A DNA stretch of 64,000 bases from an uncultured Aurantimonas sp. (lineage in GTDB: Bacteria > Pseudomonadota > Alphaproteobacteria > Rhizobiales > Rhizobiaceae). Location: positions 186,001 to 250,000 of the forward strand of contig CANKZU010000001.1 in NCBI GenBank assembly GCA_947488615.1, written 5' to 3'. The position numbers and the translations under genes are program-made. This document shows, piece by piece, positions 3,836 to 46,816 of this stretch (the first letter of the stretch is position 1; each line of letters opens with the position of its first letter). Below the pieces are notes generated by a model. The model saw nothing but the letters and a program-made list of their open reading frames with translations. It made no database searches and was not told where the DNA came from.

Positions 3836-4008
3836 GTGTCGCCTCACCCTCATCTACCACGAATATTCGCTGGAAAAGCGAGAATACGCCACAGAAAAGG
3901 CGGCTGAGGTGAAGACCCCGCCGCCCGCAATTTCTCGACTGTATGTGAAAGCTAACAAAGCACCGTGACGGTGTCAAGGAATATTTTCATATTTCTGATC
4001 GAACCCGA

Positions 4009-14198: not shown

Positions 14199-14699
14199 TC
14201 ACCCGCCGTCGATCGACGGGCGGTAATCCTCTGTTCCCCATTGCCGGATGCGCGAAGGCCGTAAACGGTCGGTGCCGACTAGCCCGTAATGGCGAGCCAG
14301 AACGCCGAGGCCGGCTTTCAGCAGTAGTTTGGCTGAGCGTGCGGGCCATTGCCGTTCCCGCTCAACGGTTTCCAGCCCCTTCAGGAAACAGCAAATGTCG
14401 ACGAGAACGCCCGCGAGTTCCGGTCCGACAGCCTTGATCGCGGCATTGACCCGTTGCCGCGCGTCGATCGCCGAGTCCGACAAATCGCCCGCACCGCACC
14501 GCCTCCCCTTCTCGCGGAGCTGGGCGTCCCAACGTTGCGTGACCCCGGGCATCAACTGACCGCGCGTGAAATCGACCCGCAGCCGCTCGCCGGCCAGCGC
14601 TTCCGCTTCGGCCAGGAACGGCTCGCCGCCTTTGCCGCGTCGCTGGGCCAGCCGCGCCAACGGGGACTCGTTTGGATTGTAGCCCGCAAAGGCCGCCAT
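14199..14699 (-). CDS. DUF6456 domain-containing protein
   Basis: NPNESPLARLAQRRGKGGEPFLAEAEALAGERLRVDFTRGQLMPGVTQRW. Confidence 0.75.
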   Translation of the reverse strand: MAAFAGYNPNESPLARLAQRRGKGGEPFLAEAEALAGERLRVDFTRGQLMPGVTQRWDAQLREKGRRCGAGDLSDSAIDARQRVNAAIKAVGPELAGVLVDICCFLKGLETVERERQWPARSAKLLLKAGLGVLARHYGLVGTDRLRPSRIRQWGTEDYRPSIDGG

Positions 14700-15160
14700 C
14701 AGGCGTCTCCCCGCACACATCCCCGATCGCATGTTTCGAGCGCCGCGCGGACCGCGTGTGCCAAGCCTTCCAAGCGCTCGACAGCGGAATCGAACGCCTG
14801 ATCGTCGCGTCGATCCTCGATGCGGCGGATGGCATAGGCGATCGTCGTGCGGTCGCGCCCGAACCCCTCGGCCATCGCGGACAAGGGAATCTGGAAGGCG
14901 ACATGGGCCAGATACATGGCGACGTGCCGGGCCTCGCAGACGCTGGCGATCGCTCGACCCGGCCGCTCGATCTCCCGCACGGGGATGGCGAAGAAGGCGC
15001 CGGCGATTTCCCTTGCCAGCCGGCAGGTGCGCGAAACCGCCTGGTGATCGATCCCGGTGACGGGGCTGGCCTCGGCTTTCCCCCGCCCCGCATCGCCGCA
15101 AGCGACGGGTGCCGGAGGGAGCGGTCGGGTGGAAGCCCGGTCTGCGGAAAAGGACTGCAT
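14699..15160 (-). CDS. DnaA C-terminal-type helix-turn-helix protein
   Basis: RHVAMYLAHVAFQIPLSAMAEGFGRDRTTIAYAIRRIED resembles DnaA domain IV; SD AGGAGGTCAAACGCG before ATG at 15160. Confidence 0.8.
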   Translation of the reverse strand: MQSFSADRASTRPLPPAPVACGDAGRGKAEASPVTGIDHQAVSRTCRLAREIAGAFFAIPVREIERPGRAIASVCEARHVAMYLAHVAFQIPLSAMAEGFGRDRTTIAYAIRRIEDRRDDQAFDSAVERLEGLAHAVRAALETCDRGCVRGDA

Positions 15161-15306
15161 CGCGTTTGACCTCCTGTTGGCGGCGACCATCCGTCTATAG
15201 GTCATTGCTGCCAAAAGGGGAAATAATTCCTATTTTATTCAGCGATACTGATCGAAACCCGCATAATTTTCGGATATTCTGACTTTTCGCCGCCTTAGAA
15301 AAAAGG

Positions 15307-15314
15307 ATTTTATC
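15307..15314. repeat. 8-bp target-site duplication ATTTTATC, left copy
   Basis: Identical to 18039..18046, directly flanking matched inverted repeats. Confidence 0.9.
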
Positions 15315-15344
15315 CCCAATTATATACTTGAGAAAGCAGAATCG

Positions 15345-15536
15345 ATGTGCGAGGGTGATTCTCGACAGGCCGGCATTGAAAGAGCTGAGGAAATAGAGGT
15401 TACTCCGCCTATGATCGGTGCTGGAAAGCGCGTTCTTGATGAGTGGGGCCTAGCGGATGATTTAGCGGCGGTGGATATTGGATTTTTGACCGAAATATAT
15501 CGTGCCATGCATCGCGCTTCTGCTGATGTTTGTTGA
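15345..15536 (+). CDS. small hypothetical passenger protein
   Basis: 63 aa, VTPPMIGAGKRVLDEWG...FLTEIYRAMHRAS resembles a small family common in rhizobial mobile DNA; overlaps the 3' end of the minus-strand ORF 15409..16089. Confidence 0.45.
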   Translation: MCEGDSRQAGIERAEEIEVTPPMIGAGKRVLDEWGLADDLAAVDIGFLTEIYRAMHRASADVC

Positions 15537-16089
15537 CCACTTCGTTTCCTGCGATGTAATTTTCGTAGCTCTGAAAAAGTTCCGAAAGAAATAGAAGAAG
15601 CAATTTTTGCGCAATCATCGTTTTCGTTTCGATGAAGCCATAGTGTTCGGGTCCGTTTTTTCGAAACGACTTAATGTCCATTTTTGATCGCGTTTCCGAT
15701 TGTTGTTTTTCCTTTTGGGTTGAGAGGGCAAAAGTCACCCCTTCCTTAGTCCAGAACCTAACTACGATATAATGTACGACCTTATTACGAAATGAGGTTG
15801 CCTTTGATGTCTTCTCCAGTAGCGACTTGTAGAACGGTTCGGTTCCGGACCACCTGGAATGCTGCAAGGCCGACTCCAGTATGTTGTTTCTAGTGGATGC
15901 ATTCGAGACGCTGAAAAGGACGGCATTAGCGAGGCTCGGATCGCAGGGCATGGCGTGCGCGAGAAGGTCAGCCATCGCCATCTCTAAGTGAGCGTAACTG
16001 TCGATGTATTCGCTCCGCGCTACCTGAAAACGGGTGTAGGCTTGCTGGATTTCTTCGACCGTCATCGAATTTTGAGGAGTGTCCGGCAT
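15409..16089 (-). CDS. hypothetical passenger protein with HEPN-like motif
   Basis: AT-rich ORF; SFRNKVVHYIV contains RX4H; alternative start at 16107. Confidence 0.6.
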   Translation of the reverse strand: MPDTPQNSMTVEEIQQAYTRFQVARSEYIDSYAHLEMAMADLLAHAMPCDPSLANAVLFSVSNASTRNNILESALQHSRWSGTEPFYKSLLEKTSKATSFRNKVVHYIVVRFWTKEGVTFALSTQKEKQQSETRSKMDIKSFRKNGPEHYGFIETKTMIAQKLLLLFLSELFQSYENYIAGNEVVNKHQQKRDAWHDIFRSKIQYPPPLNHPLGPTHQERAFQHRS

Positions 16090-16237
16090 GTCAGAACCTC
16101 GGGACAATAAGAATCAGGATAAAGGCGACGAGGTTCTTCGCCGCCTGCTGAAGACCCCGCCCCATCCGAAGACCGGGAAGGGCGAGAAGCCAGCCAAAGA
16201 GGAAAAGCCGAATGAGCTTAGCCATGATGGACGATAA
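16088..16237 (+). CDS. 49-aa micro-ORF, paralogue of the next ORF
   Basis: MSEPRDNKNQDKGDEVLRRLLKTPPHPKTGKGEKPAKEEKPNELSHDGR; similar to 16224..16358. Confidence 0.6.
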   Translation: MSEPRDNKNQDKGDEVLRRLLKTPPHPKTGKGEKPAKEEKPNELSHDGR

Positions 16238-16358
16238 CTCGGATGACCAAAAACGGGACCAGGTTCTAAAGCGCCTTCTCGAAACGCCTCCCCAGCCTAA
16301 GGGCGGGAAGCCGGAGAAGGAAGGCGAGACGAAGCCGAAGAAGGATGTCCGAAAATGA
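16224..16358 (+). CDS. 44-aa micro-ORF, paralogue of the previous ORF
   Basis: MMDDNSDDQKRDQVLKRLLETPPQPKGGKPEKEGETKPKKDVRK; overlaps both neighbours. Confidence 0.6.
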   Translation: MMDDNSDDQKRDQVLKRLLETPPQPKGGKPEKEGETKPKKDVRK

Positions 16359-16582
16359 GCTTCATGCAACGCGAGATTGAACGCCTCAACAGCGCCATCA
16401 ATTCTGGTTTGGGCGAACGCTCGGAACTGTATGCCGCCCAGCAGGCCCTTTCGTGGGCAATGGAGCCGGGCGGCATCAAGTCACCTTATGCGATGATTAT
16501 GGGCACTCGGGTAAACTCAGAAGATTGTTTGGCTCATCCCCATCAGCCTCCGTCTTCAGATACTTGTTCCCAAATCGGCTGA
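16355..16582 (+). CDS. small hypothetical passenger protein
   Basis: ATGA overlap with the previous ORF; SELYAAQQALSWAMEPGGIKSPYAMIMG; 3' part overlaps the minus-strand DUF3892 gene. Confidence 0.5.
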   Translation: MSFMQREIERLNSAINSGLGERSELYAAQQALSWAMEPGGIKSPYAMIMGTRVNSEDCLAHPHQPPSSDTCSQIG

Positions 16583-16778
16583 CGGCGACGACGACCCGAA
16601 CTCGATCGCCGCTTGGGCGATCGACGTAGAAATCCCATTCGCTGCGCTCTATTTTGCCTATTGCATCAGCAAGGGTGAGCTTCCACTGGGAACTGGCGAA
16701 CCCGCCGACATGTGTGATGGCGTGATATGCGTCTACCCGTGGATTTTTGTTGATGCATTTGATCTGCGCGGTGTTCAT
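16497..16778 (-). CDS. DUF3892-like protein
   Basis: IKCINKNPRVDAYHAITHVGG...KLTLADAIGKIERSEWDFYVD. Confidence 0.7.
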   Translation of the reverse strand: MNTAQIKCINKNPRVDAYHAITHVGGFASSQWKLTLADAIGKIERSEWDFYVDRPSGDRVRVVVAVSRFGNKYLKTEADGDEPNNLLSLPECP

Positions 16779-17004
16779 GCTGTTGATGTCCTGTGATGAT
16801 CGCCACAGGAGGGATTGCAGAAACCGACGACTCAGCTATGGTCCGAAGCGTGATCATGAGAAGCCCTCCAACGGCTTCGTTTCGAAGATGGCGACGGTCT
16901 GAACCACCGTCGCCATTTCGCATTGCGGACTGATTCTAGGTTGCAAAGCAAGTCTTAACTACGACTTACCTTTGCGTATCCACCAGAGTCTTCGCGCTTT
17001 CTGC

Positions 17005-17976
17005 TTAAGCGTTCGCGGCTTCACCAATCCGCCGATAGGTCAAGCGCTTTCCCTCGATGCCGGCAAGGGCCTTGTCGCGACGCTGGATATCCGAGACGCC
17101 TAGCTTCGTGCGGGCGTTGTAGCGGAAATCGAACTCCGCCAGATAGCGGTGAAGGTGGGACTCGCCGCAGTGGTGATAGACGCCCTTCATGCCGCGCTTG
17201 AAGATGCCGAACACGCCTTCGATGCTGTTCGTGTTGACCGGGCCGCGAGCATATTCGCCAGCGGTGTGACGGATGGTCTCGTGCCCGCCTTTGAACTCGG
17301 TTCCCAGCGTCGTGTAGAGGCGGCTTTCGTCGGTGTAGAGGATGCTTTCGCGGGAGACGTTGGCGACGACGATGTTGCGGACGGTTTCCTTGTTGGCCTT
17401 CTCGGCATGGAACATGCGGACCCTGCCGCCGCGCTCGACTAGGCCGATGATGGCGCGCTTGTTCGCGGCCTTGCCGCCCTTGATGAAGGGGGTGCCGTCC
17501 GTCTTCATGGTCGGCTTGCGGCCTTCCTTGTCGCCGAAATAGGTCTCGTCAGCCTCGATCGTCTTGCCATTGCCGCCAAGCGGGCCGGACGTGGCAACGT
17601 CGTCGCGCATGGCCTCGCGAATGCGGTGGCACATGAACCACGCGGTTTTGTAGGTCACGCCCAACATGCGGTGGATCTGGTGCGCGGACATGCCCTTCTT
17701 CGATGACGTGAGAAGGTGCGTTGCGAGCAGCCACTTGTTCAGGGCGATCTTGGAGCGCTCGAAGACGGTGCCCACGGTTACGGTGAACTGCCCACGGCAT
17801 TCCTTGCACTGGAACAGCCCGGCGCGGTGAGCCTTGCCGGACAACTCTGTGATTGTTGTCCTATCGCAGTTGCCGCAATGGGGGCAGATCGGGCCGTTCG
17901 GCCAGCGGATCGCCTGCAAATGCTCACGGGCCTTGTCGGCATCTGTGAAGATTGGGTTGAGAAGGTCTGTGGTCAT
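17005..17976 (-). CDS. IS1595 family transposase
   Basis: CPHCGNCDRTTITELSGK zinc-binding N-terminus, IEADETYFGDKEG, TNSIEGVFGIFKRGMKGVYHHC, FDFRYNAR. Confidence 0.95.
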   Translation of the reverse strand: MTTDLLNPIFTDADKAREHLQAIRWPNGPICPHCGNCDRTTITELSGKAHRAGLFQCKECRGQFTVTVGTVFERSKIALNKWLLATHLLTSSKKGMSAHQIHRMLGVTYKTAWFMCHRIREAMRDDVATSGPLGGNGKTIEADETYFGDKEGRKPTMKTDGTPFIKGGKAANKRAIIGLVERGGRVRMFHAEKANKETVRNIVVANVSRESILYTDESRLYTTLGTEFKGGHETIRHTAGEYARGPVNTNSIEGVFGIFKRGMKGVYHHCGESHLHRYLAEFDFRYNARTKLGVSDIQRRDKALAGIEGKRLTYRRIGEAANA

Positions 17977-18038
17977 CGGGCTAACTCCTTGAGCCCTTTA
18001 TGGCATATCAGCGCTGCTTTGTCACGTATATAATTGGG

Positions 18039-18046
18039 ATTTTATC
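18039..18046. repeat. 8-bp target-site duplication ATTTTATC, right copy
   Basis: Identical to 15307..15314. Confidence 0.9.
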
Positions 18047-18099: not shown

Positions 18100-18564
18100 A
18101 TGACCAGGTATCTCGACCTTTCTCCTCTCACGGCCGCGCTCGAAGGAGCCGCTCGCAGCCACGCCGAGGCACGGCGGCGCGAGGCGCAGCGGGATCTCTC
18201 CCGCCTCGAACTCGCGATGCTGCTGCGCCGGTTCGGCTTGGAGCAGCGGGCACTGTCGGATGCCGTGGCCAAGGATGACGCCGCCGGCATCTCGGCAATA
18301 GAAGCGGGGACCTTGCGGGCCAAGGTTCGCGCAGAACTTGGTCTGCTGACGCGTCTCGCCCGACGGCGCGATCCCCGCTACGACATCAACCGGCACATTG
18401 CGGTCATGCGCCTTGCCCGGTGGCTGAAGGGTGGTCGATCCTGGCACCTGCACGAGACCGAACCCGGCTCCGGCCGCTCGAAAAACCGGCGCTTTCGTCG
18501 CACCGTCGCCCGTCAGTCAGACGGCCGGCCGAGGCGGAAATTCCAACGCCCGGCCCTGTTTTGA
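18100..18564 (+). CDS. hypothetical protein
   Basis: MTRYLDLSPLTAALEGAARSHAEARRREAQRDLSRLELAMLLRRFGLEQRAL; next to the DnaA-like gene across the transposon. Confidence 0.65.
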   Translation: MTRYLDLSPLTAALEGAARSHAEARRREAQRDLSRLELAMLLRRFGLEQRALSDAVAKDDAAGISAIEAGTLRAKVRAELGLLTRLARRRDPRYDINRHIAVMRLARWLKGGRSWHLHETEPGSGRSKNRRFRRTVARQSDGRPRRKFQRPALF

Positions 18565-18720
18565 TCTACGACGAACGACTTAGACGGCGACCGCCGACAT
18601 TTCTTGACAGGGCTCCTCTCGCTGCTTCACAACCACATCCAACCGCAAGGTCAGGATATTGCTGCCGGCTCCGATGCCGGCTGGTCTGGTCGTTTGCGTT
18701 TGTATGGGAGGATTATCGAA

Positions 18721-19944
18721 ATGCGTATGATGAAATTGCTTCTCGCCGGCTCCGTCGCGGCCGCCGCGCTTGTGCCGGCCACAGTCGGCGCGCAGGAAGT
18801 CTCGAACGATGTCGTCAAGATCGGCATTCTGAACGACCAGTCCGGCGTTTATGCCGATTTCGGCGGTCAGTCGTCGGTCGAGGCGGCGAAGATGGCGATC
18901 GAGGATTTCGGGGGCGAGGTTCTCGGCAAGCCGGTCGAACTCATCTCGGCAGACCATCAGAACAAGGCCGATATCGCCTCGAACATCGCCCGTGAGTGGT
19001 ACGACGTACAGAATGTCGACGCCATCATGGAGCTGACGACATCGTCCGTCGCCCTCGCCGTCCAGGGCCTGTCGCGCGAAAAGCAGAAGATCACCATCGT
19101 GACCGGCGCCGCGACCACGGAACTGACCGGCAAGCAGTGCAGCCCCTACGGCTTCCACTGGGTCTACGACACCCACGCCCTGGCCGTCGGCACCGGCGGC
19201 GCGCTGGTGAAGGCCGGCGGCGACAGCTGGTTCTTCCTTACCGCCGATTACGCCTTCGGCTATTCGCTGGAAGAGCAGACCGGCAATTTCGTCAAGGAAA
19301 ACGGCGGTGAAGTTCTCGGCGCGGTTCGCCATCCGCTCGGCACCACCGACTTCTCCTCCTTCCTCCTCCAGGCCCAGAGTTCCGGCGCCAAGGTCATCGG
19401 CCTCGCCAATGCCGGTCTCGATACGGCCAGCGCGATCAAGGGCGCGGCTGAATTCGGCATCGTTCAGGCCGGCCAGAAGCTCGCCGGCCTGCTGTTCACG
19501 CTGGCTGAGGTCCACGGCCTCGGACTCGAGGCGGCGCAAGGGCTGAACCTCACCGAAGGTTGGTATTGGGATCAGAGCGACGAGAACCGCGAATTCGCCG
19601 ACCGCCTGATGGAGCGGACGGGAAGCCGGCCGAACATGATTCATGCCGGCACCTATTCGGCCGTGACCCAGTACCTCAAGGCGGTCGAGGCTGCCGGCAC
19701 CGACGCCACCGACGCCGTGTCCGCCAAACTGCACGAGATGCCGGTCGAAGACGTTTTCGCCAAGTCCGGCAAGGTGCAGGAAAACGGCCGGATGGTCTAT
19801 GACATGTTCCTGTTCGAGGTGAAGGCACCGGCCGATTCCAAGGGTGAATGGGACTACTACAAGGAAGTCTCCTCCGTCCCTGGCAGCGACGCCTTCTTGT
19901 CGGTCGAAGACTCCGGCTGCGACGTCGCCAGCTTCAAAAACTGA
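18721..19944 (+). CDS. ABC transporter substrate-binding protein (branched-chain amino-acid type)
   Basis: Signal peptide; VVKIGILNDQSGVYADFGGQSSVEAAKMAIEDFGG. Confidence 0.93.
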   Translation: MRMMKLLLAGSVAAAALVPATVGAQEVSNDVVKIGILNDQSGVYADFGGQSSVEAAKMAIEDFGGEVLGKPVELISADHQNKADIASNIAREWYDVQNVDAIMELTTSSVALAVQGLSREKQKITIVTGAATTELTGKQCSPYGFHWVYDTHALAVGTGGALVKAGGDSWFFLTADYAFGYSLEEQTGNFVKENGGEVLGAVRHPLGTTDFSSFLLQAQSSGAKVIGLANAGLDTASAIKGAAEFGIVQAGQKLAGLLFTLAEVHGLGLEAAQGLNLTEGWYWDQSDENREFADRLMERTGSRPNMIHAGTYSAVTQYLKAVEAAGTDATDAVSAKLHEMPVEDVFAKSGKVQENGRMVYDMFLFEVKAPADSKGEWDYYKEVSSVPGSDAFLSVEDSGCDVASFKN

Positions 19945-20148
19945 CGCATTTGGCGTGGCCGGCGAGGCAAGGCTTCGGCGCCTTGCTTCTCGGCCGCGCC
20001 AGCTTGGGCGCCGCGACTGCCCAGATCTATGTGAAATAGGCAAAGTTTGGGCTTGAAGTCCGGCGCGTCGACCGGTCCAATGGCACCTGCGCATCGGCCG
20101 CCCCGGGGAGGTGGCGACCGGTCTTTTGTGAACTGGGAGGACCGATTG

Positions 20149-21378
20149 ATGACGACCAAGCGCCCTGTCGCGACAGCACTCGCCGCCAGCCTCGCCGCGG
20201 CTGTCGCCTGGCCGGCAACAGCCCAGGACGTGTCGAACGACGTCGTCAAGATCGGCATCCTCAACGATATGTCGGGCGTTTATGCCGACACGGCGGGCCA
20301 GGGCTCCGTGGCGGCGGCTGAACTCGCCATCGAGGATTTCGGCGACACCGTGCTCGACAAACCGATCGAGATCATTTCGGCCGATCACCAGAACAAGGCG
20401 GATGTCGGATCGAACATCGCCCGCGAGTGGTATGACGTGCAGAACGTCGACGTCATCATGGACCTGACGACATCCTCGGTGGCGCTCGCCGTTCAGGGTC
20501 TCTCGCGCGAGAAGAAGAAAATCACCATCACCACCGGCGGCGGCTCCACCGAGATCACCGGCGGACAGTGCAGTCCTTACGGCTTTCACTGGGCCTACAA
20601 CACCCGCGCCTTGTCGCAAGGCACGGCCGGCTCGCTGGTCAGGGGCGGCGACGACACCTGGTTCTTCGTCACCGCCGATTACACCTTCGGCGATTCGCTA
20701 CAGGGTGAGGCCACCAAGGTCATCGAGGCAAATGGCGGCCAGGTCCTCGGCGATATCCGCCATCCCTTGTCGACGACTGACTTCTCCTCCTTCATGCTGC
20801 AAGCGCAGAGTTCGGGCGCCAGGGTCATCGGGCTCGCCAATGCCGGGCTCGACACGGCGAACGCGGTCAAGGCGGCGACCGAGTTCGGTCTCGTTCAGGC
20901 CGGACAGAAACTGGCCGCGCTTCTGATCACCCTGTCCGAGGTCCATGGACTGGGCGGCGAGGCGGCCCAGGGTCTCAACCTCACCGAAGGATGGTATTGG
21001 GACCAGAGTGAAGAGAACCGCGCCTTTGCCGAGCGCTACATGGACAAATTCGGCAAGATGCCGAACATGATCCATGTCGGTACCTACTCGGCCGTTCTGC
21101 AATATCTGAAGGCCGTCAAGGAAGCCGGAACCGACGAGACCGAGGCGGTGGCCGACAAACTTCACGAGATGCCGGTCGAGGATCTGTTCGCCAAAAAGGG
21201 CAAGGTGCTCGCCAACGGCCGCATGGTCTACGACATGTATCTCTTCCAGGTGAAGACGCCGGATGAATCAACCGGCCCGTGGGATCTGTACAAGGAGGTT
21301 GCGACCGTGCCGGGAGACGTCGCCTTTGGAACGGTCGAGGATAGCGGCTGCGACCTTGCGACCTTCGCCACGAAATAA
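20149..21378 (+). CDS. ABC transporter substrate-binding protein (paralogue of upstream gene)
   Basis: VVKIGILNDMSGVYADTAGQGSVAAAELAIEDFGD; near-collinear with 18721..19944. Confidence 0.93.
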   Translation: MTTKRPVATALAASLAAAVAWPATAQDVSNDVVKIGILNDMSGVYADTAGQGSVAAAELAIEDFGDTVLDKPIEIISADHQNKADVGSNIAREWYDVQNVDVIMDLTTSSVALAVQGLSREKKKITITTGGGSTEITGGQCSPYGFHWAYNTRALSQGTAGSLVRGGDDTWFFVTADYTFGDSLQGEATKVIEANGGQVLGDIRHPLSTTDFSSFMLQAQSSGARVIGLANAGLDTANAVKAATEFGLVQAGQKLAALLITLSEVHGLGGEAAQGLNLTEGWYWDQSEENRAFAERYMDKFGKMPNMIHVGTYSAVLQYLKAVKEAGTDETEAVADKLHEMPVEDLFAKKGKVLANGRMVYDMYLFQVKTPDESTGPWDLYKEVATVPGDVAFGTVEDSGCDLATFATK

Positions 21379-46368: not shown

Positions 46369-46404
46369 ATCAACCTCCGTGACGGCCGCGAAATGCGGCA
46401 GGTT

Positions 46405-46650
46405 ACAAGGCCGGCAGGTCTCCTGGCTCACGGGTCGTCGGTCGTCGCCTCGCCTTCCCGAAGCCGAAGCTCCAGTGGCTTTTCCAATTCGTCCATCGAT
46501 GCTCATGGCATTGCCGGCACGAATCGGCGGTGACGACCTCGCCGCTCTACAGTCGCGGGGTCGGCTGCGATGAAGGCCCCCTGCTTGGGTCGGCCCGTCG
46601 CATTCCCTCTTCGCCCCAGCCGCTTGGCAGCCGGGGAACCGTCCTTCGAC
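46405..46650 (-). promoter_or_regulatory. cobalamin (AdoCbl) riboswitch
   Basis: B12 box on minus strand TGAGCCAGGAGACCTGCCGG (46411..46430) upstream of cbtB-cbtA-cob genes. Confidence 0.9.
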
Positions 46651-46816
46651 CGGATCGGGCGTTTCGCCCACTTCCGATCAATTCGTCACAGTAGCGATCG
46701 CAGCCCGTGGCGCAAGCGATTTCGCGTGCAAACAGGGTACCGGAAACGCATCGTGGCCCGGCCGCGCAATGCGCGGTCGGGCCACTCGATCGTGTTCGAT
46801 GGAAGGAAGCCTGGCG

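What the first reader, a model, noticed from the sequence alone, without database searches (positions are those of the whole stretch)
15307..18046. Intact IS1595-family transposon with passenger genes between a DnaA-like regulator and its divergent neighbour
8-bp duplications ATTTTATC (15307..15314, 18039..18046) flank 25-bp ends that match at 23 positions after inversion. The 2724-bp element holds a transposase and about five small passenger ORFs. Precise ends and perfect duplication suggest recent insertion. From memory, some IS1595 subgroups carry passenger genes; this cargo (HEPN-like protein, micro-ORF pair, DUF3892) may be undescribed.
Basis: partly seen in the sequence, partly recalled or inferred. 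Interest (0 to 1): 0.72.

Follow-up and report, generated by a model that had tools for sequence, protein, structure and literature searches.

The report
Transposon scaffold with swappable toxin-like cargo
A 2.7-kb jumping gene of a known family (IS1595) sits intact in this genome, and about ninety relatives show that it belongs to a modular design: a constant transposase and a constant tiny protein frame two slots whose cargo, mostly RNase-toxin-like genes, is replaced even between close relatives.

Summary
Element 15315-18038 (2,724 bp) has 25-bp ends matching at 23 positions and 8-bp duplications ATTTTATC. Three congeners carry the predicted empty site. The transposase is IS1595 family. The genome holds one copy, plus two other IS1595 transposons with different cargo.

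The wider result goes beyond the finding. I delimited 91 related elements (ends plus duplication) in Alphaproteobacteria. 86 of 91 are 1.8-3.1 kb and none is a bare 1.1-kb IS. They share a scaffold: IR-transposase / slot A / micro-ORF (RRDxxLRRxLxTPPKP) / slot B / small ORF (EITPxMIxAG) / IR. The micro-ORF is in 80 of 91, on a fixed strand. In 46-47 of 84 elements its start codon overlaps the divergent slot-B start in one CATG, as here at 16087-16090. Slot B is dominated by an unclassified RNxxxH (HEPN-like) family (41 of 89 against 1.5 expected). Slot A varies; here it is DUF3892. Elements with 94-96% identical transposases carry unrelated cargo, sharing only three DNA islands.

IS1595 elements with passengers are known. 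The modular layout, micro-ORF, shared start and HEPN-type cargo were not found in the papers searched. New variant of a known kind; toxin, antitoxin and exchange roles are inferred.

The parts
15307..15314 (.). left target-site duplication ATTTTATC
   Evidence: empty site in L007, L008, L009
15315..15339 (+). left terminal inverted repeat CCCAATTATATACTTGAGAAAGCAG (23/25 to the right end)
   Evidence: same end consensus CccAATTATATACTTGACAaAgCA over 91 elements
15345..15536 (+). small ORF of the 'EIxVTPxMIxAG' family (63 aa), close to the distal end, strand opposite the transposase
   Evidence: HMM match in 30 of 91 elements, always that strand and within 160 nt of the distal end; only a sub-threshold Pfam hit to DUF6127
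15409..16089 (-). slot-B cargo gene: 226-aa HEPN-like protein with R101-N-K-V-V-H106; start ATG at 16089
   Evidence: R and H invariant in 30 relatives; RNxxxH in 41 of 89 slot-B proteins against 1.5 expected; Shine-Dalgarno GAGG
16087..16090 (.). CATG: start codons of the HEPN-like gene (-) and of micro-ORF 1 (+) overlap
   Evidence: same geometry in 46-47 of 84 elements with a micro-ORF
16088..16237 (+). micro-ORF 1, first copy (49 aa, GDEVLRRLLKTPPHPK)
   Evidence: family HMM 3.6e-18; Shine-Dalgarno GGAG
16212..16358 (+). micro-ORF 1, second tandem copy (48 aa, RDQVLKRLLETPPQPK)
   Evidence: family HMM 1.5e-13
16355..16582 (+). possible third ORF (75 aa), ATGA-overlapped with the second micro-ORF; doubtful
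   Evidence: no homologue in any related element, no Pfam hit
16497..16778 (-). slot-A cargo gene: DUF3892 protein (93 aa), same strand as the transposase
   Evidence: PF13031 2e-17; also slot A of L051, L068, L097
17005..17976 (-). IS1595-family transposase, 323 aa, intact; Zn-ribbon cysteines and DDE-region residues conserved
   Evidence: PF12762, PF12760, NF033547; alignment A3
18014..18038 (-). right terminal inverted repeat; the element end lies 62 nt upstream of the transposase start
18039..18046 (.). right target-site duplication ATTTTATC

Best explanation
This is an intact, probably autonomous IS1595-family transporter IS (transposon with passengers) of a modular lineage. Shown: the transposase, ends, target duplication and empty site; a scaffold shared by about 90 elements (IR-transposase, micro-ORF, distal end) with two variable slots; unrelated cargo in elements with near-identical transposases. 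Inferred: the transposase moves the whole 2.7 kb. Slot B, here a HEPN-like protein, is a predicted metal-independent RNase acting as a toxin or anti-phage effector. The micro-ORF, divergently expressed from the same CATG start, gates or neutralises that cargo, so the element persists as a selfish addiction or defence module. New cargo is acquired by exchange at the conserved islands (transposase 3' end, micro-ORF core, distal end).
For: Identity and insertion. Scaffold: 91 non-redundant elements with inverted repeats plus 8-bp duplication (exact in all but two), median 2,447 bp, 86 of 91 within 1.8-3.1 kb. A micro-ORF is in 80 of 91, strand-fixed 64/64 and 16/16, and in 46 of 53 elements not used to build the profile. 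The micro-ORF hits with E<1e-6 in 298 genomes all lie within about 1.5 kb of an IS1595 transposase (compared by hand). Gating: shared CATG start in 46-47 of 84; Shine-Dalgarno sequences on both strands in the window; micro-ORF motif at the C-terminus of a trypsin-like cargo protein in L058. Cargo: RNxxxH in 41 of 89; invariant R/H; relatives hit HEPN_RiboL-PSP 9e-6, MtlR 2e-4 and DUF4145. Other cargo: DUF3800, SocA/Panacea, PIN, NYN, Mrr, methylase, protease. Exchange: pairs with transposases 94-96% identical carry unrelated cargo and DNA identity is confined to three islands. Micro-ORF substitutions favour codon position 3 (91/64/192).
Against: No toxicity, RNase, antitoxin or transposition assay exists. 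Foldseek found no significant HEPN match for either model. The same micro-ORF accompanies slot-B proteins of unrelated families, which fits poorly with a dedicated antitoxin and could mean a transposition accessory role. 11 of 91 elements show no detectable micro-ORF. The micro-ORF codon test used pairs preselected for amino-acid identity. HEPN-like relatives also occur in loci without an intact transposase.
Confidence: 0.66

Rival explanations
1. The micro-ORF is a transposition accessory or regulator (binding transposase, ends or host factors) and slots A and B are merely hitch-hiking passengers of miscellaneous function.
For: The micro-ORF is constant while its neighbours are unrelated proteins. 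Its confident hits are all tied to IS1595 transposases. Its strand relative to the transposase is fixed.
Against: Its start codon is tied to the slot-B start, not to the transposase. It is fused to cargo in L058. In some loci the micro-ORF plus HEPN-like pair is present with only a transposase fragment (L234, L237, L256) or none detected (L235, L251, L255, L257). 11 of 91 elements lack it.
Confidence: 0.3
2. The conserved micro-ORF region is chiefly a DNA feature (recombination island, promoter or translation platform that lends a Shine-Dalgarno and ATG to any incoming cargo), and its protein is of little importance.
For: DNA identity between elements with different cargo is confined to this 50-100 nt core, the ends and the transposase. 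The shared block stops at or just before the CATG (L112/L119).
Against: Substitutions favour third codon positions. The family is recognisable at protein level across distant elements, in both strand arrangements.
Confidence: 0.15
3. An ordinary transporter IS of the known IS1595 kind with chance cargo and nothing systematic.
For: IS1595 transporter IS with passengers are established (Siguier et al. 2009, cited in PMC11891212). More distant IS1595 elements in the order also carry cargo.
Against: The recurrent micro-ORFs, fixed strands, shared CATG start and the dominance of one cargo superfamily are far from random.
Confidence: 0.05

Closest known systems
IS1595-family transporter IS (tIS), e.g. 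ISNha5 group (Siguier, Gagnevin and Chandler 2009, as cited in PMC11891212)
   Same: IS1595 transposase, 8-bp duplication, terminal inverted repeats, passenger genes not needed for transposition
   Different: Reported ISNha5 passengers are transcription regulators. Here: fixed scaffold, conserved micro-ORF, shared CATG start, HEPN-type and other toxin/defence-like cargo exchanged between close relatives. ISfinder subgroup could not be tested; the 2009 paper was not readable here
Toxin-antitoxin pairs in Tn3-family transposons (Lima-Mendez et al. 2020, PMC7157771)
   Same: Toxin-type genes as recurrent passengers inside the transposition module; evidence for exchange of modules between transposons (there at res sites)
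   Different: Unrelated transposase family, no resolvase or res site recognised here; no recognisable antitoxin, only a 45-65 aa micro-protein; cargo much more diverse and present in nearly every element
Cargo of Tn7-like transposons (PMC8649781)
   Same: Diverse defence-related cargo carried by a transposon
   Different: Tn7-like elements use a multi-protein transposition machinery (general knowledge); here about 2.4 kb with one transposase and two slots
HEPN RNase superfamily (PMC3710099)
   Same: RNxxxH (Rx4-6H with N/D/H after R), upstream conserved acidic residue, association with genetic conflict
   Different: No Pfam or NCBIfam family covers the window protein; no fold match found; no nucleotidyltransferase (MNT) partner

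Membership tests
IS1595 insertion-sequence family | transposase with DDE_Tnp_IS1595 domain | tested here: met
   PF12762 1.4e-31, NF033547 8.6e-58
IS1595 insertion-sequence family | N-terminal zinc-ribbon (all groups but IS1016, PMC8101967) | tested here: met
   PF12760 1.4e-12; C31, C34, C57, C60 invariant
IS1595 insertion-sequence family | 8-bp target duplication and terminal inverted repeats | tested here: met
   91 relatives
IS1595 insertion-sequence family | single transposase gene without passengers (plain IS) | tested here: not met
   2,724 bp with at least five further ORFs; hence transporter IS / transposon rather than plain IS
IS1595 insertion-sequence family | ISfinder subgroup (ISNwi1, ISNha5, ISSod11 ...) | not testable with these tools
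   ISfinder not available; closest transposase found is 71% identical
Transporter IS (tIS) | IS-like transposase and ends enclosing genes not required for transposition | tested here: met
   passenger status of DUF3892 and the HEPN-like gene inferred from their exchangeability
HEPN superfamily | Rx4-6H motif with polar residue after R | tested here: met
   R101 and H106 invariant in 30 relatives, N mostly after R; 41 of 89 against 1.5 expected
HEPN superfamily | HEPN fold or profile-level similarity | tested here: inconclusive
   AlphaFold models (mean pLDDT 73 and 82) have no significant PDB match; single relatives hit HEPN_RiboL-PSP 9e-6, MtlR 2e-4, HEPN_LA2681 0.04; the window protein itself has no such hit
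HEPN superfamily | RNase activity | not testable with these tools
   needs a bench assay
Toxin-antitoxin module | small neutralising partner encoded next to the toxin | tested here: inconclusive
   micro-ORF adjacent and start-coupled but paired with unrelated cargo types; neutralisation untested
DUF3892 | Pfam PF13031 above gathering score | tested here: met
   63.8 bits against a cut-off of 22.3

The most novel reading that the evidence does not exclude
A large, unrecognised lineage of small cassette-exchange transposons: a constant transposase plus a constant micro-protein gene form an expression platform whose shared CATG start and conserved islands let unrelated toxin or defence genes be swapped in, making these elements a dispersal and diversification system for HEPN-type and other effectors across Alphaproteobacteria.
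Probability: 0.45. Interest if true: 0.82.

Novelty: new variant of a known kind. Interest (0 to 1): 0.68.

Why it matters
IS1595 elements are usually counted as simple insertion sequences. Here nearly every element of one branch carries cargo of a toxin or defence type on the same scaffold, with a micro-protein that belongs to no Pfam or NCBIfam family and is not annotated in the one public plasmid record examined (L068). If right, it gives a compact natural system for studying how transposons acquire and control toxic cargo, and a search handle (end consensus, micro-ORF profile) for finding many new HEPN-type effectors.

Tried and rejected
(1) That the cargo is unique to this locus: rejected for the layout, micro-ORFs and DUF3892; true for the particular HEPN-like sequence (two weak matches in 298 genomes, none in plasmids) and for ORF 16355-16582.
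(2) A fold-level proof of HEPN: two AlphaFold models and Foldseek gave nothing significant; a profile against PDB sequences gave nothing relevant.
(3) A dedicated, known antitoxin family: no Pfam/NCBIfam family for the micro-ORF.
(4) Proline-rich C-terminal tails shared by cargo and micro-ORF: 13 of 48 slot-B tails against 0-2 in other windows; judged too weak to use.
(5) Sigma-70 promoter and terminator scan: not above shuffles.
(6) Plain-IS relatives: only one 1,436-bp element among the more distant transposases tested (L219), so cargo is not limited to the nearest branch.
(7) PADLOC: the window protein has no hit; a few relatives match PDC/HEC candidate defence families.

Full report
OBSERVATION. 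The element occupies 15315-18038 (2,724 bp). Its 25-bp ends match at 23 positions after inversion and are bracketed by ATTTTATC at 15307-15314 and 18039-18046. Because the end begins CCC and the target reads GGATTTTATCCCC, a 13-bp repeat is visible at both junctions. Three genomes of the same genus lack the element and carry the undisturbed site: L007 has GGATTTTATCCCCC in a stretch about 90% identical, and L008 and L009 keep AAAGGATTTTATCCCC although the surrounding intergenic DNA has diverged. The full element is single copy in its genome. The insertion lies in the intergenic region upstream of a DnaA-C-domain gene (14699-15214, minus strand) and of a divergent plus-strand gene (about 18100-18564).

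WHAT IT CARRIES. Transposase 17005-17976 (-): PF12762, PF12760 and NF033547, with zinc-ribbon cysteines and the DDE-region residues conserved. Slot A: DUF3892, 16497-16778 (-). Micro-ORF 1 in two tandem copies, 16088-16237 and 16212-16358 (+). Slot B: a 226-aa protein, 15409-16089 (-), with FRNKVVH. A 63-aa ORF next to the left end, 15345-15536 (+). A doubtful 75-aa ORF at 16355-16582 (+) has no homologue in any relative. The slot-B gene and the first micro-ORF start in opposite directions from one CATG (16087-16090). Each has a Shine-Dalgarno sequence lying inside the other gene's reading region.

RELATIVES. Transposase searches in 298 genomes of the order, in plasmids and in named GTDB genomes gave loci in which I searched for a 22-bp inverted repeat with an 8-bp duplication around the transposase. 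After removing duplicates 91 elements were delimited. All score at least 16/22; 280 decoys (searched over shorter spans, 3.3 kb) never reached 16. Two have 7/8 duplications (L056, L090). Median length is 2,447 bp and 86 of 91 lie within 1.8-3.1 kb. No element of bare-IS length was found among them. Among more distant transposases (33-40% identity) most also carry cargo and one is 1,436 bp. About 24 of the 80 named-genome loci yielded no ends, several because the contig stops.

CONSERVED SMALL ORFS. Profiles of two micro-ORF families match 80 of 91 elements at E<0.01: micro1 in 64, always on the strand opposite the transposase, and micro2 in 16, always on the transposase strand. In the 53 elements that played no part in building the profiles the count is 46. 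Searching whole genomes, the micro1 hits below 1e-6 (including the two of the window) all lie within about 1.5 kb of a transposase listed (comparison made by hand). Micro1 matches no NCBIfam family and has only weak single hits in Pfam. It is not annotated in the Mesorhizobium AR02 plasmid record (L068). A third small family (EITPxMIxAG) is found in 30 of 91, always on the strand opposite the transposase and within 160 nt of the distal end.

SHARED START. In 47 of 84 elements with a micro-ORF (46 if the dubious L072 is set aside) an in-frame micro-ORF start codon lies in a CATG whose other strand opens at least 80 codons of the neighbouring gene. Over all ATGs opening at least 35 codons in the cargo regions the figure is 8%, and most of those are likely these same pairs. 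The test allowed a choice among in-frame starts, so it is somewhat generous, but the excess is large.

CARGO. Slot-B proteins fall into one cluster of 47, one of 11 and many small ones. RNxxxH occurs in 41 of 89 against 1.5 +/- 1.2 in shuffled sequences. In a 30-member alignment with the window protein, R101 and H106 are the only invariant residues. That is the catalytic signature of HEPN RNases (PMC3710099). Relatives hit HEPN_RiboL-PSP, MtlR and DUF4145 weakly. AlphaFold models were partly confident (mean pLDDT 73, mean pLDDT 82) but Foldseek against PDB returned nothing significant. I therefore call it HEPN-like by motif, not by fold. Other cargo genes match DUF3800, SocA/Panacea, PIN, NYN, Mrr, an N6/N4 methylase, Clp- and trypsin-like proteases and RelA/SpoT. 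Slot-A genes include DUF3892 in four elements and unrelated small proteins elsewhere.

EXCHANGE. Elements with nearly identical transposases carry unrelated cargo: L128/L130 (96% identical protein), L108/L113 (94%), L113/L127 (88%). Aligning their DNA shows identity confined to the end plus transposase (about 1-1,100), a 50-100 nt core of the micro-ORF and, in most pairs, the distal end; slots A and B do not align. In L112/L119 the shared micro-ORF block stops at the CATG. L161/L166 share slot A and the micro-ORF but their slot-B genes do not align as DNA. Micro-ORF substitutions between similar copies favour the third codon position (91/64/192), consistent with a protein under constraint, though the pairs were chosen by protein similarity.

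MECHANISM. Shown: an IS1595 element that inserted with target duplication, and a scaffold with replaceable slots. Inferred: the transposase moves the whole unit; the HEPN-like protein is an RNase toxin or anti-phage effector; the micro-protein controls it through the shared start or by binding; exchange occurs at the conserved islands. The main rival is that the micro-protein serves transposition, since its neighbours are unrelated proteins. The fusion of a micro-ORF to the cargo protein of L058 and the start coupling favour cargo control, but only experiments can tell.

COMPARISON. Passenger-carrying IS1595 elements (transporter IS) are established (Siguier et al. 2009, known here only through PMC11891212; paper itself not held). 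TA pairs as integral parts of Tn3 transposons, exchanged between elements, are the closest conceptual parallel (PMC7157771). No paper held in the library was found to link IS1595 elements to HEPN cargo; this is absence from open-licence papers only.

VERDICT. Observation confirmed; interpretation supported and extended; new variant of a known kind.

Noticed in passing
L223, L224, L229, L236, L239, L243, L245, L254, L259, L260 (HEPN-like hit near position 4000 of each; transposase fragment about 0.5-1.5 kb away): In ten loci of the same order the HEPN-like gene lies near a stand-alone ORF that matches only the N-terminal zinc-ribbon/HTH part (about 115-125 residues) of the IS1595 transposase, same strand as the HEPN-like gene, with no catalytic domain. 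This looks like repeated domestication of a transposase DNA-binding domain with its cargo.
   Followed up: partly
own genome contigs C7:72889-73818 and C12:65406-66308 (L071, L072), outside the window: Two further IS1595 elements with perfect 22-bp ends and 8-bp duplications (2,771 and 2,600 bp) in the same genome, carrying different cargo and the micro2 family.
   Followed up: partly
window 15302-15317 and L007, L008, L009: The target AAAGGATTTTATCCCC is conserved between species while the surrounding intergenic DNA diverges, and is nearly palindromic; it may be a regulatory site of the flanking genes. The insertion regenerates a 13-bp copy on each side.
   Followed up: no
L058:6322-7410: Micro-ORF motif fused in frame to the C-terminus of a trypsin-like cargo protein of a related transposon.
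   Followed up: no
window 46396-46658 (-): Cobalamin riboswitch, 75 bits.
   Followed up: no
window 18604-19944 and 20047-21378 (+): Two adjacent similar ORFs resembling ABC-transporter substrate-binding proteins, apparently a tandem duplication (by inspection).
   Followed up: no
L078 (G263 contig C44, 37000-56000): Apparently nested or stacked IS1595 transposons: a 7.1-kb element enclosing two other IS1595 transposases.
   Followed up: no
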